Assembly: GCF_026410385.1 (NCBI RefSeq)
Contig: NZ_JAPMLT010000002.1
Location: 310,001 to 374,000, forward strand
Origin: Tumebacillus lacus
GTDB lineage: Bacteria; Bacillota; Bacilli; Tumebacillales; Tumebacillaceae
Reading direction: 5' to 3'
DNA length: 64,000 bases
The stretch's first letter is position 1. Each line of letters starts with the position of its first letter. This document shows, piece by piece, positions 47,021-53,429 of the stretch. A program made the translations under genes and the position numbers. The notes beneath the pieces were generated by a model. The model was not told the origin of the DNA. It worked only from the letters and a program-made list of their open reading frames with translations, and did no database searches.

Positions 47021-47988
47021 CAGGCTTCCCCCTCCATCTCCAAGAGTCGCCTGTGCACGACTTTCCCGATCACCCAATACTCCTGCGTCGTGAAAGGAGC
47101 TGTCATTCTCGGTTCAAAATCAAGGGGATTGCCTTCCACATCCACCAAATCACCTGTGCGGTGGACTCGAAATCCTGTATCTTTCGAGAACTCCTGCTCC
47201 TGCACCGGATAGTTCCCAATCGTCTTGAAATATCCGTTCAACCAAGGACTGGCCGTCACAACATGAGGCGCGATCAGGAGATTGTCAGGCGACAGAGCTT
47301 GACGGTCCGGCATCTCCTGTGTGTGAGAATGCAGATTGTAGAGATAGACCAAATTCTTTCCTTTGATGGTCGAACTCTTGCTTTCAAGCTTTGTACGCAT
47401 CACTCGTCCGTAATAGTAGACCCCTTCATGCGGCTGAAAGACAAACACATCCCCTTCCCGCGGTCGCTTTGAACTGAGTTCAATTCGAACGAGTTCTGTC
47501 GGAATTCTGAATCCACCGAGTCCGGCCTCTTGCATATACTTCTCGATTCCCGTTTCAACGTGATACAACGTGTAGATGCCATAGGGAACGCGGATCTTCG
47601 GAACATGACTCAGGGGATTTCCCTTCGCATCTTTGTATCGTTTTTCCACCTTTAATGCGTTAAAAAAACCATAGTCCAGCGAGTCATCCTTCTGGGTCAC
47701 ACCCAGGTTTCCGACCGTATAAAAATAGCCGCTGCTCCAAGGATACCCGGTCACAATAAACGGGGGAATCAAGAGGTTGTCCGGATCTAATTCATCTGGT
47801 AGTTCCATCTGTTCAGAACATGTCCGATAGAGAAACACCAGCATGCACCTGCTACCGATGTCTATCTCCAGTGCTACCTCCTGAATCACTTTGCCGTAAA
47901 AATACAAACCTTCTCTCGGCTGCACGACAAAGACATCTCCAGGCTCCGGCTTCTTTCTCGACATCTTGATTTTGAGGATTTGAGTCAT
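47020..47988 (-). CDS. Tandem Imm26-family immunity protein
   Basis: 322 residues made of two copies of the Immunity-26 fold. First copy: PEPGDVFVVQPREGLYFYGKVIQ ... DNLLIPPFIVTGYPWSSGYFYTVGN. Second copy: PREGDVFVFQPHEGVYYYGRVMR ... DNLLIAPHVVTASPWLNGYFKTIGN. Imm26 proteins protect against polymorphic contact-dependent toxins. No toxin gene is in this window. The start overlaps the upstream ankyrin gene (ATGA), so they are coupled. Confidence 0.85.
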   Translation of the reverse strand: MTQILKIKMSRKKPEPGDVFVVQPREGLYFYGKVIQEVALEIDIGSRCMLVFLYRTCSEQMELPDELDPDNLLIPPFIVTGYPWSSGYFYTVGNLGVTQKDDSLDYGFFNALKVEKRYKDAKGNPLSHVPKIRVPYGIYTLYHVETGIEKYMQEAGLGGFRIPTELVRIELSSKRPREGDVFVFQPHEGVYYYGRVMRTKLESKSSTIKGKNLVYLYNLHSHTQEMPDRQALSPDNLLIAPHVVTASPWLNGYFKTIGNYPVQEQEFSKDTGFRVHRTGDLVDVEGNPLDFEPRMTAPFTTQEYWVIGKVVHRRLLEMEGEA

Positions 47989-49157
47989 TGTGCGTCACCA
48001 TGTACAAAGTCCGAGATCTTCGCATCTTCTGGGTTCATCCCATACCTGACATCCGTTCCGATCAGCCATTGGGAATAATCTGTAACCAGCACATCCCAGA
48101 TCCGATCATGAGGCAGATCCCCCCAGTGATCTTGTACATACTGGACTACAAACTGCTTTTTGCCCGACATGGACAGCTTCATAAACTCGTCGCGAAGCTC
48201 ATCGCTCAGAAACGTCAGTTGCAGCATCGCACCGATATCAGGATCTGTTCCGTCGCTGAGGATGGTCGGCATCACATAGTAGTGCAGGATCTCGATGATT
48301 TCCTCTTCGGTCTGCGCATCTGCCACAGACGGCGTCCTGGTCTCCGTATCGCCCCGTTGTTTAAGAGCGGTCACGATGGAACCATGATCATGCGCGGCCG
48401 CGAGCCAGAGAGCCGTCCTGCCGTTGTTGTCTTTGACATGGATGTCAGCCTCGGCATCCAGCAAGATGTCGACAGCCTCTTCGTTGCCCGATACGATTGC
48501 AGTCATGAGAGGAGTCACCCCACCTCTTGTTTGCAGATCAGGATCGACACCCTTTTTAAGCAAGGTACGCATCATCTCGTTCACGACTGGTTTTTCGGCC
48601 CCGTACTCGACGGCAAAGTGAAGGAGGTTGAAGCCGGTTTCGTTTTTCCAGCCCAGTTCGACGGAGCCTTGATGCAGCAAAGACTCAAACGTCTCCAAAT
48701 CCCCGACTCTCATGCTGGATAACAAGCGTTGTTCTGCGCTGACGATCCACACCACGCGCGTCTCGCCGTCCCATTCCACCTCTGCCCCGAGGGCTTCACT
48801 GACAAACCGGAGCGGCACGAGAGTGCGGCCATTTACAAGTTGCGGTTTTTCAGCCAGAGTCAGAGAGATGCCGTTCACAATCGCAGTCTGCACTCCGATC
48901 TGTAATTCCACAGTCGTGTTGCGCTTCGTGGCAATGACCTTTTGATTGATCCCATCCCACTTTACTTCAGCCCCGAGGCTTTCAAAGATCCCGCGCATCG
49001 GGACCAGAGTGGTGCCTTCGACGAGGAGCGGCGGTTGGTCATAGGTTTGGACTTCGTAATCCAACAGAACCCCAATTGGAACTTGTGCAGAGACAGGCAC
49101 AGGACTGGTAATCGTCAGCAACGTGACGAACAAAAGCGAGAAAGCGCGTTTCAACAT
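47985..49157 (-). CDS. Exported copper-amine-oxidase-N / ankyrin protein, copy 2
   Basis: 390 residues from MLKRAFSLLFVTLLTITSPV (GGGGGG upstream). Signal peptide, then two copper-amine-oxidase-N units (VEGTTLVPMRGIFESLGAEVKW, VNGRTLVPLRFVSEALGAEVEW), then ankyrin repeats (GFNLLHFAVEYGAEKP, GVTPLMTAIVSGNEEAVDILLDAEADIHVKDNNGRTALWLAAAHDH), then an unfamiliar alpha-helical tail (EEEIIEILHYYVMPTI). Paralogue of the 49282 gene. Ankyrins outside the membrane are unusual in Bacillota. Function unknown. Confidence 0.87.
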   Translation of the reverse strand: MLKRAFSLLFVTLLTITSPVPVSAQVPIGVLLDYEVQTYDQPPLLVEGTTLVPMRGIFESLGAEVKWDGINQKVIATKRNTTVELQIGVQTAIVNGISLTLAEKPQLVNGRTLVPLRFVSEALGAEVEWDGETRVVWIVSAEQRLLSSMRVGDLETFESLLHQGSVELGWKNETGFNLLHFAVEYGAEKPVVNEMMRTLLKKGVDPDLQTRGGVTPLMTAIVSGNEEAVDILLDAEADIHVKDNNGRTALWLAAAHDHGSIVTALKQRGDTETRTPSVADAQTEEEIIEILHYYVMPTILSDGTDPDIGAMLQLTFLSDELRDEFMKLSMSGKKQFVVQYVQDHWGDLPHDRIWDVLVTDYSQWLIGTDVRYGMNPEDAKISDFVHGDAQ

Positions 49158-49212
49158 GACTCCCCCCAGCAATTAATAACCACATATTACCACGTTGTAG
49201 ATTCTAAAAACA

Positions 49213-49250
49213 CAAAAAAGTCTTCCGAGCATGAAACGGAAGACTTCAAA
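49213..49250 (-). terminator. Terminator between the two ankyrin genes
   Basis: AAGTCTTCCG-TTTCATGCT-CGGAAGACTT then TTTTTTG on the minus strand. It isolates copy 1 (with its upstream regulator) from copy 2. Confidence 0.85.
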
Positions 49251-49281
49251 GAGGTTCTCACAAATTGATCCCTAATCATTA

Positions 49282-50472
49282 CTAAAAATCAAACCCACCA
49301 TCCTTCGGATACACGATCTTCGCATCCTCGATCTTAGTCTCACCGGTAACATCAATCCCGATCAGCGGCTGGCCCAGATAAGACAGGATCGTATAGCAGT
49401 GGTCCATCCCGAGCACAAAGCCCCAGTGGTCTTGCGCATACTCGACGAGCAGTTTCTTTTTCCCTGTCTCGGACAGTTGTTGGTAAGCGTCGTAGTACTC
49501 CTTCGTCCCCAGATTCAGGAACATGAGTGCTTCCATACGCGACAAACCGTAGTCGTTTTCATACTGGCCGTCGATGACTGTGCGGCTCAGATGGAAGTGC
49601 AGGACATCGATCACCTCGTCCTCCGTCTGTGCGTCTGCCAACTGCGGGGGTTGCGTCTCGGTGTCGCCCGCTTCTCGGAGCAGGTCGACGATGCCCAGTT
49701 CCTCTTCGGCAGCCGCTTGCCAGAGAGCCGTCGCTCCCTTTTTGTTTTTCAGGTGGACGTCCGCCTTTGCTTCCAGCAGGATTTCCACTCCGTTTTGATT
49801 GCCCATATAGGCGGCCGTCATCAGCACGGTGTTCCCGATCTCATTTTGATAATCCGGATCAGCCCCCGCATGCAACAGCTTGGTCATCATCTCGTTGGCA
49901 AGCGAATCACGCGAGCCGACGATCGCCGCCATGCTGAGAGGGTTATCCCGGCCGTTTCCATCCGGGTCTACATGGCCGAGGTTCAGCAAATACACGAACG
50001 TGTCCCAATCCCCTGCCCGCACACTGTTGTACAACCGCTCCTCCGCGCTGAAGATCTCCACCGTGCGCGACTCGCCATGCCACTTGACCTCCGCCCCCAG
50101 CGACTCGCTGACAAATCGCAGCGGCACGAGGGTACGGCCGTTTACGATCTGCGGCTTTTGCGTCAGGGTCAGAGTCGTGCCGTTCACTTTCGCCGTCTGC
50201 ACGCCGACCTGCAATTCAACAGTCGCGCTGCTCTTTGTGGCGATAATCTTTTGATTCGCATCGTCCCATGTCACGTCTGCACCGAGGTTTTCAAAGAGGC
50301 CGCGCATCGGGACGAGCGTGGTACCTTCGACCAGCAGCGGCGGTTGGTCGTAGGCTTGCGTTTTATAATCAAAGAAGACACGAATCGGTTCATCAGCAGA
50401 CACTTCTACAGGATGAGTCCCGACAAACATAGCAGCGACGAAAAGAGGGGCTACGACCTTCAAACGTTTCAA
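49282..50472 (-). CDS. Exported copper-amine-oxidase-N / ankyrin protein, copy 1
   Basis: 396 residues from a TTG at 50472 with AGGAGG 9 nt upstream; an ATG upstream reads through an unrelated N-terminus. Signal peptide LKVVAPLFVAAMFVG, two copper-amine-oxidase-N units, ankyrins (GNTVLMTAAYMGNQNGVEILLEAKADVHLKNKKGATALWQAAAEEE), then a tail like copy 2's. It lies 51 nt downstream of the 50524 regulator, so one transcript may carry both. Confidence 0.88.
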   Translation of the reverse strand: MKRLKVVAPLFVAAMFVGTHPVEVSADEPIRVFFDYKTQAYDQPPLLVEGTTLVPMRGLFENLGADVTWDDANQKIIATKSSATVELQVGVQTAKVNGTTLTLTQKPQIVNGRTLVPLRFVSESLGAEVKWHGESRTVEIFSAEERLYNSVRAGDWDTFVYLLNLGHVDPDGNGRDNPLSMAAIVGSRDSLANEMMTKLLHAGADPDYQNEIGNTVLMTAAYMGNQNGVEILLEAKADVHLKNKKGATALWQAAAEEELGIVDLLREAGDTETQPPQLADAQTEDEVIDVLHFHLSRTVIDGQYENDYGLSRMEALMFLNLGTKEYYDAYQQLSETGKKKLLVEYAQDHWGFVLGMDHCYTILSYLGQPLIGIDVTGETKIEDAKIVYPKDGGFDF

Positions 50473-50523
50473 CTCATAAAACCTCCTAACAGGCTGAATC
50501 ATCTACTACTACCAAGTTCTACA

Positions 50524-51816
50524 TCACAACACGATCCCCCTCCTCAAAAGTTCCTCATGCGTCTGGTTGCGCACCTCATCCATGATCTTGTAAGCCTGAC
50601 CGTACTCTTTCACCTCCACGTACACACAGGACAGTTCGAACATCGTGTCTCCATACTCCCGCAGTTCCTTTTGCTGCAAATACACTTCGGCCGCTGTTTG
50701 GTAGCGGTGGATCGCGGTCTGTCGCTGCTGTCTCAGGTGGAGGTCCACCTTCGCCCGCAGGCGATGCACCCACGCCTGACAGATGTGATGGTCCGGCAAC
50801 ACGTTCTGCGTCTGCAAGCACGCAGCCTCGCACTCCTCCCAACGCCCGAGGTGACTCATCAGTTTCGCGATCTCAACCAGCGTCGTGCCGGCCTCCTCGA
50901 TCTGCCCCATCCAGACGAACTGCTTGTAGGCGTCTTGCAACATCGGCTCGGCTTCCTCTGCTTGACCGGATGCGATGTGAGAGATGGCGGATGTCACCTG
51001 ATTGCGCAGGACGAACAGGCGATCCTCCAGCCCCTTGAAGATCCCGGCCGCACGCTCCGAGTAGTCGACCGACATTTGCAGGTCGTTCTGCTGTTGGTAG
51101 CTCGTGCTCAGCCCGAGGTAGACGTGCCCGATGGCTCGCAGGTTGTCAGTTCCAGCATAGAGCGCGGCCGCTTCGTCCAAGTACCGCTGTGCGTCGTGTG
51201 GCCGCTCCATTTTGAGTTGCACGGTGCCGAGCACATGCAGGATCTCCGCTCGCAGGAACAGGTCTGGGTGGTCCATCCTCTCCAGACTGGCGAGACCCTT
51301 CTCCCACAGAAACGCGGCCAACGGGTACCGTCTGCGCCGCTCCTCGATCTCCCCGAGCAGTTTCAGGGTGCGGGCGACCTTGTGATGATCTTGGCGCAGC
51401 ACGCCCCATTCCTGCACCTCGTGCAGTTGCTTCTCCGCTCGGTCCAGATCGCCGGTGTGGAGCAGGCATTCACCGAGTTCCAGTTGGATGTCGATGGTGG
51501 AGACCTGGGAGCGTTGCTCCTTCAACAGTTCCTCCAGATAGGGGATCGCGGATGGATATTCCTTGGCCCCGACCAGTGCCCGCGCCATTTTAAAGGCGCT
51601 GACGTGTTCGAGGTTCATGTCGGTGTCGATCAGCAATGTCTCAAGCTGTGTGTCCAGCCGTTCCGCGATGGCGATCAGCATCTTGTACGACGGACGGGCA
51701 CGATCCGATTCGATCTGCGAGATCATGGAAGCCGTGCAGATCCCTTTTGCGAGATCGATCTGGGTCATTTTCTTTTTCAAGCGTATTTCGCGTAGACGTT
51801 GACCAAGTGAGAACAT
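50524..51816 (-). CDS. XRE/TPR regulator (RRNPP-like), next to ankyrin genes
   Basis: 430 residues. HTH at about 4-58 (LGQRLREIRLKKKMTQIDLAKGICTASMISQIESDRARPSYKML), then TPR helices (AIPYLEELLKEQ, LDRAEKQLHEVQEWG, DAQRYLDEAAALYAG, HVYLGLSTSYQQQNDLQMSVDYSERAA). Sequence pattern closely follows the regulators at 25751 and 37493. No propeptide follows; instead an exported ankyrin protein gene starts 51 nt later. It may be an orphan receptor or sense a peptide from the 52 kb locus. Confidence 0.88.
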   Translation of the reverse strand: MFSLGQRLREIRLKKKMTQIDLAKGICTASMISQIESDRARPSYKMLIAIAERLDTQLETLLIDTDMNLEHVSAFKMARALVGAKEYPSAIPYLEELLKEQRSQVSTIDIQLELGECLLHTGDLDRAEKQLHEVQEWGVLRQDHHKVARTLKLLGEIEERRRRYPLAAFLWEKGLASLERMDHPDLFLRAEILHVLGTVQLKMERPHDAQRYLDEAAALYAGTDNLRAIGHVYLGLSTSYQQQNDLQMSVDYSERAAGIFKGLEDRLFVLRNQVTSAISHIASGQAEEAEPMLQDAYKQFVWMGQIEEAGTTLVEIAKLMSHLGRWEECEAACLQTQNVLPDHHICQAWVHRLRAKVDLHLRQQRQTAIHRYQTAAEVYLQQKELREYGDTMFELSCVYVEVKEYGQAYKIMDEVRNQTHEELLRRGIVL

Positions 51817-51901: not shown

Positions 51902-51926
51902 CTACTATTCTCGATGCCAATAGTAG
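51902..51926. promoter_or_regulatory. Palindrome upstream of the 50524 regulator
   Basis: CTACTATT-N9-AATAGTAG, perfect 8-bp arms, between the propeptide terminator and the regulator start. It is a likely operator. No convincing -35/-10 pair is visible nearby. Confidence 0.5.
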
Positions 51927-51945
51927 TCAGATAATTTATTGGCAA

Positions 51946-51979
51946 ATAAAAAACACCCCTATCAAATAGGGATGTTTTA
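51946..51979 (-). terminator. Terminator of the receptor-pheromone operon
   Basis: AAACA-CCCTAT / ATAGGG-TGTTT with one mismatch, then TTTTTTATTTG on the minus strand. The stem begins within the propeptide stop codon region. Confidence 0.82.
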
Positions 51980-52132
51980 AACCCGAATCGAGAAACCGCC
52001 AATTGGAATCGTCTCCGCTACCTGCTTCGCCAGTGACCCACCAATCGGAATCGTCTCCACTACTTGTGTTACCTCTGAGAAAAGCAAGCCGGCACAAACA
52101 ATCACAGCAACAAACAGTAACCCTTTCTTCAT
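51977..52132 (-). CDS. Exported propeptide with duplicated ETIPIGG pheromone candidate
   Basis: 51 residues from ATG at 52132 (AAGGAGC 8 nt upstream). Basic start MKKG, hydrophobic export segment LLFVAVIVCAGLLF, then SEVTQVV-ETIPIGG-SLAKQVA-ETIPIGG-FSIRV. The heptapeptide ETIPIGG occurs twice, 14 residues apart, in a QV(V/A)ETIPIGG context. The ORF starts one base after the stop of the adjacent TPR receptor. This matches a Phr/PapR/NprX-type precursor, but multicopy precursors are rare. A short (5-8 residue) pheromone within the repeat is inferred, not shown. Confidence 0.87.
   Translation of the reverse strand: MKKGLLFVAVIVCAGLLFSEVTQVVETIPIGGSLAKQVAETIPIGGFSIRV
51995..52057. repeat. Duplicated pheromone-coding segment
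   Basis: Two 21-nt copies (51995-52015 and 52037-52057), 42 nt apart, encoding ETIPIGG, differing at only a few third positions. The flanks also match (QVV/QVA), consistent with a short in-frame duplication. Confidence 0.88.
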
Positions 52133-52133
52133 C

Positions 52134-53315
52134 TCACAACGCTCCTTCATCGAGGATGTCCATACTGGATGAGGATAGTTCCTCTCCCCGCTCATAATAA
52201 TAGATGAATTTTGTTGAGTCGCCTTTGCCACGGAAATGGTGCATTAAATATCTGCAAGCTACATATCGAACATTCCTGCTATACTCCTCCTCCTGAAACA
52301 CAAGTTCTGCATGAGTCGGCTCATCGAGCGCCCGCGAAAGCAAGACCAGCAACTTCCCTCTCAGTGGGGAGACCCGTTGATCTGTCAAGGAAGATAACGT
52401 TGACTGTATCCAAACTGCGGCAGCTTGATTCCTATTGAGTTTGATCAGAGTCTTAACCAATTCCTTTCTTGCAATCTGCTGCGAAAACACGTCTTCTTCG
52501 AGGTCGTCAATCGCTTGTTCCAAAAGTTCCTGTGCCTGTTCATAGTTTTGTGTGAGGTACTCATAGTGTGCAGCATTCACTTTTGTCTTACCGATCAGCG
52601 TCCTCTTGTTCGCTTGCATCGCATGGTGTACCGATTGGTAAGCAAATTTCTTTGCACCCTGAATATCTTTCGCGCTCTCTCTAATTTTTGCATGTTGATA
52701 GCAAATCGCTGACCGACGTGTTGGGTCCTCCTGAAATACCGATTCTACCTCACGAAGTATTTTGGAGGCATTTAAATAGTTGCCAAGTGCCGTGTATACG
52801 TCCATTAAGGCATTTAGAACAAGCGAGTATAAATCTGTGTCTCCGTATTCTTTTTCAATATACACAGCTTGCTGATAGGCTTCGATCAATGAATCATGTG
52901 CGTGTTCGTAGCTCTTATTTAAAAATTGCGCGAAACCTACTCGGAGTCGAGCATAGCAACGCTCTGTTACTCCCTTGCTTGTCGCAAGCAATTGCAAGGA
53001 GAGAACAAGAGCTTCCTCCGGGTACGATTGTTTGTTCAATAGTTCCTTCAATCTATTTCCGATCTCAGTGCAATCAGTTTGCCTGATTCTTGCCACCGTT
53101 ATTTTTAGATCGGTGGCAATTTTCTCAAGTTCAAAATTGTAGATCTCCCGTTGCCCGTTCAACATCGATCTGAACGTCTCACGATTGGTTCCCAAACGTT
53201 TGGACATCGCTGCGAGAGAATAATATTTGCCCTTCTCCGCCATGATCTCGCGTATGCGTCTGCCGATGGGGATCTGATCGAGGGCCGTGTATGGAGATGC
53301 ACCCAACTGCGTCAC
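52134..53315 (-). CDS. XRE/TPR regulator, receptor for the ETIPIGG propeptide
   Basis: 393 residues from GTG at 53315 (GGAGGTTTCAAAC upstream). N-terminal HTH (IREIMAEKGKYYSLAAMSKRLGTNRETFRSMLNGQREI) differs clearly from the other three regulators here. TPR-like helices follow (SYEHAHDSLIEAYQQAVYIEKE, GNYLNASKILREVESVFQE, QNYEQAQELLEQAIDDL). The gene lies head-to-tail with the propeptide, 1 nt apart. Base composition is lower in GC than neighbours at 50 kb. Receptor role is inferred from position and fold. Confidence 0.85.
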   Translation of the reverse strand: MTQLGASPYTALDQIPIGRRIREIMAEKGKYYSLAAMSKRLGTNRETFRSMLNGQREIYNFELEKIATDLKITVARIRQTDCTEIGNRLKELLNKQSYPEEALVLSLQLLATSKGVTERCYARLRVGFAQFLNKSYEHAHDSLIEAYQQAVYIEKEYGDTDLYSLVLNALMDVYTALGNYLNASKILREVESVFQEDPTRRSAICYQHAKIRESAKDIQGAKKFAYQSVHHAMQANKRTLIGKTKVNAAHYEYLTQNYEQAQELLEQAIDDLEEDVFSQQIARKELVKTLIKLNRNQAAAVWIQSTLSSLTDQRVSPLRGKLLVLLSRALDEPTHAELVFQEEEYSRNVRYVACRYLMHHFRGKGDSTKFIYYYERGEELSSSSMDILDEGAL

Positions 53316-53388
53316 GTTTGAAACCTCCGATCCTGTTCTTCTCCAAATTATACAACTGAATAATCCATGCGTACAGACTATTTAGAAA

Positions 53389-53429
53389 TGAAAAAAGCTA
53401 CCGATATCCATATCGGTAGCTTTTTTCGC
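53389..53429. terminator. Bidirectional terminator
   Basis: AAAAAAGCTACCGATAT-CC-ATATCGGTAGCTTTTTT, a perfect 15-17-bp stem, just after the 53431 gene on the minus strand. Confidence 0.92.

What the first reader, a model, noticed from the sequence alone, without database searches (positions are those of the whole stretch)
51977..53315. Two-copy pheromone precursor (ETIPIGG x2) with a dedicated TPR receptor
A 51-residue exported propeptide contains the identical heptapeptide ETIPIGG twice, 14 residues apart, encoded by near-identical 21-nt repeats. It begins one base after the stop of an XRE/TPR regulator, the organisation of RRNPP systems (PlcR-PapR, NprR-NprX, Rap-Phr). Most known precursors carry one mature peptide, so duplication may raise signal dose. 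The receptor HTH differs from the three other TPR regulators in the window, suggesting a separate subfamily. That ETIPIGG is the signal is inference.
Basis: partly seen in the sequence, partly recalled or inferred. Interest (0 to 1): 0.9.

Follow-up and report, generated by a model that had tools for sequence, protein, structure and literature searches.

The report
Tumebacillus peptide-pheromone system, two-copy precursor
A Tumebacillus bacterium carries a small gene for an exported peptide that holds the same 7-residue message twice, next to the gene for its probable intracellular receptor; it is one of dozens of such peptide-receptor pairs in this bacterial family, usually followed by a second regulator gene, and it looks like a new branch of a known kind of quorum sensing.

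Summary
On the minus strand a 393-aa HTH/TPR regulator (52134-53315) is followed after one base by a 51-aa ORF (51977-52132) with an export-type N-terminus and ETIPIGG twice; a terminator follows at once. 42 of 58 tails match a strict core motif (shuffled mean 0.5), and ETIPIGG fills it. Each of the three other Tumebacillus genomes has an orthologue with core AETxPI. Core similarity tracks receptor similarity, mainly in the TPR part. The best reading is an RRNPP-type autoinducing system. Multi-copy precursors are not new: Phr105 has two identical copies, and up to eight are reported. What I add: the pair is usually part of a three-gene module. In 38 of 57 cassettes a second XRE/TPR regulator (here 50524-51816) starts about 280-660 nt after the receptor, often behind TGTCA...TGACA inverted repeats, and is the likely target. 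Receptor genes share a promoter signature (TRTRCW-N17-TATAATT). Peptide processing, import, binding and regulation are inferred. AlphaFold could not place the tail.

The parts
52134..53315 (-). Receptor A: HTH (about residues 17-78) plus eight helical TPR-like hairpins (80-380), 393 aa
   Evidence: 79 homologous ORFs read out of the searched genomes
51977..52132 (-). Propeptide B, 51 aa: basic N-terminus, hydrophobic export segment, two-copy tail
   Evidence: homologous ORFs follow 58 of 79 receptor-like ORFs
52037..52057 (-). Copy 1 of ETIPIGG (GAGACGATTCCGATTGGTGGG)
51995..52015 (-). Copy 2 of ETIPIGG (GAGACGATTCCAATTGGCGGT), followed by the FSIRV tail
52142..52147 (-). Ribosome-binding site of B (AAGGAG), inside the receptor's last codons
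   Evidence: SD6
51950..51978 (-). Rho-independent terminator directly after B
   Evidence: terminators at the same place in most related cassettes
53347..53352 (-). -10 element TATAAT of the receptor promoter
53370..53375 (-). -35 position TGTACG, 17 bp from TATAAT; variant of the family signature TRTRCW-N17-TATAATT
   Evidence: 33 of 45 family-wide matches lie just upstream of receptor genes
53324..53328 (-). Ribosome-binding site of A (GGAGG)
50524..51816 (-). C: second XRE/TPR regulator (HTH_3 + TPR_12, 430 aa), conserved third gene of the module; probable target or partner (inferred)
   Evidence: C homologue downstream in 38 of 57 cassettes
51902..51926 (.). Inverted repeat CTACTATT-N9-AATAGTAG between B and C, possible operator
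   Evidence: position-equivalent TGTCA-N-TGACA repeats in 15 of 30 gaps examined
51915..51944 (.). Inverted repeat TGCCAATA-N14-TATTGGCA between B and C, possible operator

Best explanation
This is an RRNPP-type peptide quorum-sensing cassette of a Tumebacillus-family-specific subfamily. B is made together with A, exported through its N-terminal hydrophobic segment, and cut outside the cell to release one peptide per copy that contains ETIPIGG (possibly longer, e.g. AETIPIGG or ETIPIGGFSI). The peptide re-enters through an oligopeptide permease and binds the TPR groove of A. Peptide binding changes A's DNA binding at its own promoter (TGTACG-N17-TATAAT) and most likely at the promoter of the adjacent regulator gene C, which relays the signal. 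Shown: gene layout, conservation of the core, covariation with receptors, receptor fold class, family-wide promoter signature, and recurrence of C. Inferred: export, cleavage sites, import, binding, direction of regulation, and C as target (for C alone about 0.5).
For: 58 of 79 homologous receptor ORFs are followed (nearly always within -4 to +16 nt of the stop codon) by an ORF with a basic start and hydrophobic segment. 42 of 58 tails match one 8-residue core, against mean 0.46 and maximum 4 in 500 shuffles. The window receptor groups at 100/96 support with one receptor in each other genome of the genus, with cores AETTPIGG/SETIPIRP, AETVPIIP and AETVPIFP. Core similarity follows receptor identity, rho 0.38 against a permutation maximum of 0.26, stronger for the TPR part (0.39) than the HTH (0.26). 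AF2 model pLDDT 90; NprR (E 2e-5), PlcR-PapR7 (2.7e-5), Rap3T and RapJ are among the matches; RapI Z 22.4 and NprR Z 22.1. Import machinery is present: 12 SBP_bac_5 and 6 oligo_HPY genes over cut-off. Promoter signature: 45 family-wide matches against 2 for the reversed pattern, 33 upstream of receptors. C downstream in 38 of 57 cassettes; TGTCA-N8-16-TGACA in 15 of 30 B-C gaps against a shuffle maximum of 1.
Against: Generic TPR proteins (LGN) rank above RRNPP receptors in both fold searches, so the fold alone does not prove peptide sensing. AF2 of the L002 in-frame receptor-propeptide fusion left the tail at pLDDT 22-35, so no docking support. C's divergence does not track A's (rho 0.003) and 19 of 57 cassettes lack a detected C, so C may not be a dedicated target. 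Covariation tests are not corrected for shared ancestry. The window's own B-C inverted repeats differ from the TGTCA/TGACA type.
Confidence: 0.8

Rival explanations
1. B is a membrane microprotein that controls A from the membrane or by translational coupling, without a diffusible signal.
For: B has a strong hydrophobic segment with no clear signal-peptidase or lipobox site; start and stop codons overlap or abut in most cassettes.
Against: Conservation and covariation lie in the proline-rich tail, not the hydrophobic part. The core is duplicated, sometimes 3-5 times, as expected of a processed signal rather than a membrane anchor. Oligopeptide permeases are present.
Confidence: 0.1
2. B is a secreted bioactive peptide (bacteriocin- or RiPP-like) and A is its local regulator.
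For: Small exported precursor next to a regulator; one homologue (L163) has four 13-residue repeats.
Against: No recognisable modification, immunity or dedicated export genes at the locus. The core covaries with the receptor's TPR part. Up to about 15 pairs per genome is typical of signalling families such as Alo (PMC7425212).
Confidence: 0.05
3. A and C both bind the same peptide, or A acts on C by protein contact (as Rap of pLS20 counteracts the Xre-type repressor Rco), rather than C being a transcriptional target.
For: C is also HTH+TPR and sits next to A-B in most cassettes; a receptor-peptide pair controlling an Xre regulator is known in pLS20 (PMC3814332).
Against: Inverted repeats cluster in the B-C gap, pointing to DNA-level control; the C family is much larger than the A family and mostly stands without A; no covariation of A and C.
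Confidence: 0.2
4. The small ORF and repeat are chance features of non-coding DNA downstream of a regulator.
For: Only that the ORF is short.
Against: Recurrence in 58 loci with ribosome sites and a common core; all three differences between the two DNA copies are synonymous.
Confidence: 0.01

Closest known systems
AloR-AloP systems of Paenibacillus (PMC7425212)
   Same: HTH+TPR receptor followed directly by a 32-50 aa exported propeptide; many paralogous pairs per genome; a recurrent downstream target gene (spo0E-like)
   Different: Here the recurrent downstream gene is an XRE/TPR regulator; the core A-[ED]-[TW]-x-P-[PI]-x-[PG] lies inside the tail rather than at the C-terminal end (AloP13: SHGRGG); no receptor match outside the Tumebacillus family at E 1e-12 in 300 genomes of the class. 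Direct sequence comparison with AloR was not made.
Rap-Phr of phage phi105 (PMC11343458)
   Same: Two identical pheromone copies (ERPVGT) in one propeptide, short spacer (4 aa); processed by extracellular proteases
   Different: Rap-type receptor without HTH; here the second copy is followed by a 5-residue tail conserved in orthologues
NprR-NprX
   Same: HTH plus extended TPR domain; among the nearest solved peptide receptors (5dbk; profile E 1.9e-4); internal pheromone with residues after it (NprX: general knowledge)
   Different: No close sequence relationship; the Spo0F-binding function of NprR was not tested
AimR-AimP-aimX and pLS20 Rap-Phr-Rco
   Same: Receptor and pheromone linked to the gene they control (aimX) or to an Xre-type regulator (Rco, PMC3814332)
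   Different: Phage/plasmid systems; C here is a 430-aa HTH+TPR protein
Candidate novel RRNPP subfamilies of RRNPP_detector (PMC10075063)
   Same: Same signature; that survey reports Alicyclobacillaceae systems (10 next to biosynthetic clusters), the NCBI family in which Tumebacillus is placed (from memory)
   Different: The main text does not mention Tumebacillus, this core or the three-gene module; its supplement could not be read, so this subfamily may already be listed there

Membership tests
RRNPP(A) quorum sensing | Cytosolic receptor with TPR domain (and N-terminal HTH in most subfamilies) | tested here: met
   TPR_12 E 3.9e-5, TPR_19 5.4e-5, HTH_26 6e-4, all just under Pfam cut-offs; AF2 model: HTH plus eight helical hairpins, pLDDT 90
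RRNPP(A) quorum sensing | Receptor fold like Rap/NprR/PlcR | tested here: inconclusive
   5dbk NprR E 2e-5 TM 0.56, 3u3w PlcR 2.7e-5; RapI Z 22.4, NprR Z 22.1. LGN TPR ranks above, so the match is to TPR superhelices in general
RRNPP(A) quorum sensing | Adjacent short propeptide gene with basic/hydrophobic export N-terminus | tested here: met
   by hydropathy only, no signal-peptide predictor was available
RRNPP(A) quorum sensing | Signal segment in the propeptide tail, conserved with and matched to the receptor | tested here: met
RRNPP(A) quorum sensing | Re-import by oligopeptide permease | tested here: inconclusive
   Opp-type genes present in the genome; their use by this peptide not testable
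RRNPP(A) quorum sensing | Peptide binds receptor and changes its activity with cell density | not testable with these tools
   AF2 of an in-frame orthologue fusion gave no placed tail
AloR subfamily | Sequence relationship to Paenibacillus AloR | not tested
   No AloR sequence compared; profile search of 300 class genomes gave no hit outside the family at E 1e-12
NprR subfamily | Sequence relationship to NprR | tested here: inconclusive
   Only E 1.9e-4 with the family profile, like other TPR proteins

The most novel reading that the evidence does not exclude
A lineage-specific RRNPP subfamily built as a three-gene relay: receptor A and pheromone B control an adjacent second HTH/TPR regulator C, with C variants exchanged or homogenised between modules inside a genome. 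About a dozen parallel pheromone channels per cell would then feed a shared pool of C regulators.
Probability: 0.35. Interest if true: 0.65.

Novelty: new member of a known kind. Interest (0 to 1): 0.45.

Why it matters
It gives a set of about 58 receptor/pheromone pairs from seven genomes in which the signal core can be read directly, partly because natural repeats mark its borders. That is good material for decoding how TPR receptors choose peptides. It also points to an uncharacterised second regulator as the probable output, and to a bacterial family whose peptide communication I found no paper about. The two-copy precursor itself has known precedents.

Tried and rejected
An in-frame orthologue fusion (L002) was allowed but gave an unplaced tail, pLDDT 22-35. 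(2) Plasmid and phage collections: no tblastn match, so no evidence of mobile carriage. (3) TTGACAT-type half-sites upstream of A: 3 against 1.4 expected, at most weak. (4) Co-inheritance of A and C: rho 0.003, rejected as simple co-divergence. (5) Pfam and NCBIfam give no family-level name for A or B; PHROGs none for B. (7) A search for papers with both Tumebacillus and RRNPP found none.

Full report
OBSERVATION. The receptor ORF (52134-53315, minus) and the 51-aa ORF (51977-52132, minus) are as described. The small ORF starts one base after the receptor's stop, has AAGGAG in front of it, and contains ETIPIGG at residues 26-32 and 40-46. The two 21-nt copies differ at three third-codon positions, all silent. 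A shuffle of the tail never produced a 7-residue repeat in 200,000 trials. A terminator begins at the stop codon and a hairpin with T-runs separates the receptor from the gene upstream (53391-53426), so A and B form one closed unit.

WHERE IT IS. The window lies in a 4.18-Mb draft genome. Its relatives are Tumebacillus: contigs of two same-genus genomes match T. permanentifrigoris DSM 18773 and T. flagellatus GST4 in contig number and length.

FAMILY. The receptor has relatives in all seven genomes held for this family, 6-15 matches each. One weak match lies outside it (G012, E 3e-6) and falls outside the family on the tree. A profile search of 300 genomes of the class found no match at E 1e-12 outside the family, about six candidates scored per genome. 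There was no match in plasmid or phage records. It is therefore a lineage-specific radiation.

79 homologous ORFs (some fragments) were read out with their downstream DNA. 58 are followed by an ORF with a basic start and hydrophobic segment, nearly always within -4 to +16 nt of the receptor's stop and nearly all with a ribosome site. The tails share a core: in 57 aligned cores position 1 is A in 55, position 5 P in 47, position 6 P/I/V in 52, position 8 P in 52. A strict pattern for that core is met by 42 of 58 tails, against 0.46 on average (maximum 4) after shuffling. ETIPIGG occupies exactly this core. In the receptor tree the window receptor forms a 100/96 clade with one receptor from each of the three other genomes of the genus. 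Their tails are AETTPIGGDSVKI-SETIPIRPDSITL, AETVPIIPSSV and AETVPIFPDSI. So the ORF and the segment are both conserved, at 39-42% receptor identity.

HOW LONG IS THE SIGNAL. Natural repeats mark the unit. In several multi-copy precursors its period is 13 residues: L002 (2 copies), L030 (3), L059 (2) and an extra propeptide gene in T. flagellatus L163 (4 copies: SEWSDPEPSGVTVA SWYDPDPSGVIVA TWHDPDPSGVTVA IYHDPDPLGIVAVKG). It is 14 in the window, 15 in L055 and 16 in L054; L049 has about five diverged copies. The invariant part is the 7-8-residue core, but residues after it are also conserved inside clades (xS[IV] here; GI[VI]A in the large clade). I therefore treat ETIPIGG as the minimum, not the proven, mature peptide.

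RECEPTOR. Pfam sees TPR_12/TPR_19 and HTH_26 just under cut-off. The AlphaFold model (21 natural rows) has mean pLDDT 90 and shows an HTH and eight helical hairpins. NprR, PlcR, Rap3T and RapJ are among the significant Foldseek matches, and RapI and NprR score Z about 22, but LGN-type TPR proteins score higher. The fold fits a peptide receptor without proving it. Core similarity correlates with receptor identity (rho 0.38; maximum of 2000 permutations 0.26), more with the TPR part (0.39) than the HTH (0.26). Shared ancestry contributes to this number.

REGULATORY DNA. Upstream of the receptor genes lies a shared promoter: TRTRCW, 17 bp, TATAATT. Family-wide it matches 45 times against 2 for the reversed pattern, and 33 of the 45 lie within 450 nt upstream of a receptor. 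The window has TGTACG-N17-TATAAT. The -35 is not TTGACA, which would suit a promoter whose strength depends on a regulator; that is inference.

A THIRD GENE. All three orthologues have, about 300 nt after the receptor, a homologue of the window's 50524-51816 regulator. Across the set, 38 of 57 cassettes with at least 700 nt of flank do; one search shows gene order A-B-C in the longer flanks. The C family has 17-33 matches per genome of this family, so chance would put one there in well under 1% of cassettes (own estimate). The B-C gap holds the terminator, then TGTCA-N8-16-TGACA in 15 of 30 gaps (shuffles at most 1) and often an AACCACC/GGTGGTTTATT hairpin before C's ribosome site. The window's gap has two other perfect 8-bp inverted repeats. 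By analogy with AloR13-AloP13-spo0E (PMC7425212), AimR-aimX, and the Rap/Phr-Rco circuit of pLS20 (PMC3814332), C is the most likely output. Against a fixed A-C partnership: C identity does not follow A identity (rho 0.003).

MECHANISM. Shown: layout, core, covariation, fold class, promoter signature, recurrence of C, presence of Opp-type importers. Inferred: export, cleavage, import, binding, autoregulation, control of C.

WHAT IS KNOWN. RRNPP systems are defined as adjacent receptor and propeptide genes (PMC10075063). Multi-copy propeptides are known in AimR, NprR, PlcR and Rap (up to six copies in PMC9765709; up to eight cited in PMC11343458); Phr105 has two identical ERPVGT copies. Two propeptide genes beside one receptor are also known. 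Many pairs per genome are known from Paenibacillus (PMC7425212). So the two-copy feature is not new. The subfamily, its core and the three-gene arrangement were not found in the main texts read, but the RRNPP_detector survey did detect systems in Alicyclobacillaceae and its supplement could not be read. I file this as a new member (probable new subfamily) of RRNPP.

Noticed in passing
L163:5027-5275 (-), T. flagellatus genome G003: A second propeptide gene behind the first (L042 locus), with four 13-residue near-repeats (S/T)W(S/Y/H)DP(E/D)PSGV..; two different precursors for one receptor.
   Followed up: partly
L035, L037, L007/L069: Nine receptors form the tree sister of the window's orthologous group, stand in tandem arrays in three genomes of the sister genus, have no recognisable propeptide, and end with a basic RxFPxDKxF-type tail; solo receptors that might respond to others' peptides.
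   Followed up: partly
B-C gaps, e.g. L145, L151, L163, L166, L167, L170: Before C there is often a hairpin AACCACC..GGTGGTTTATT whose 3' arm resembles C's own ribosome site (GAGGTGGTTAAT); could be a leader that controls C's translation or transcription.
   Followed up: no
L137, L144, L145, L160, L163, L164, L167; and L147, L149, L156, L158: C is often followed by one of two small conserved proteins: a ~190-aa protein (weak TPR_12 match) or a ~122-aa protein starting like MTPYERLNWECYSRTKVRIG with no Pfam match.
   Followed up: partly
C genes of T. permanentifrigoris (L136, L145, L164, L167): C proteins in one genome have nearly identical HTH starts although their A receptors belong to distant clades; suggests gene conversion or exchange among C copies.
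   Followed up: partly
window 47985-50502 (-): Two paralogous exported proteins with a copper amine oxidase N-terminal domain plus ankyrin repeats lie directly after C (the first starts about 20 nt behind it); unusual domain combination.
   Followed up: no
L093 (G003:C3:201263, -); L092, L104, L106: The receptor promoter signature also stands before an XRE/TPR regulator outside the A family, and before HD-GYP-like proteins in three genomes; possible further targets or chance.
   Followed up: no
L009 (G000:C4:128-1210): A receptor of the own genome lies at a contig end (43 nt of downstream DNA), so its propeptide cannot be judged.
   Followed up: no
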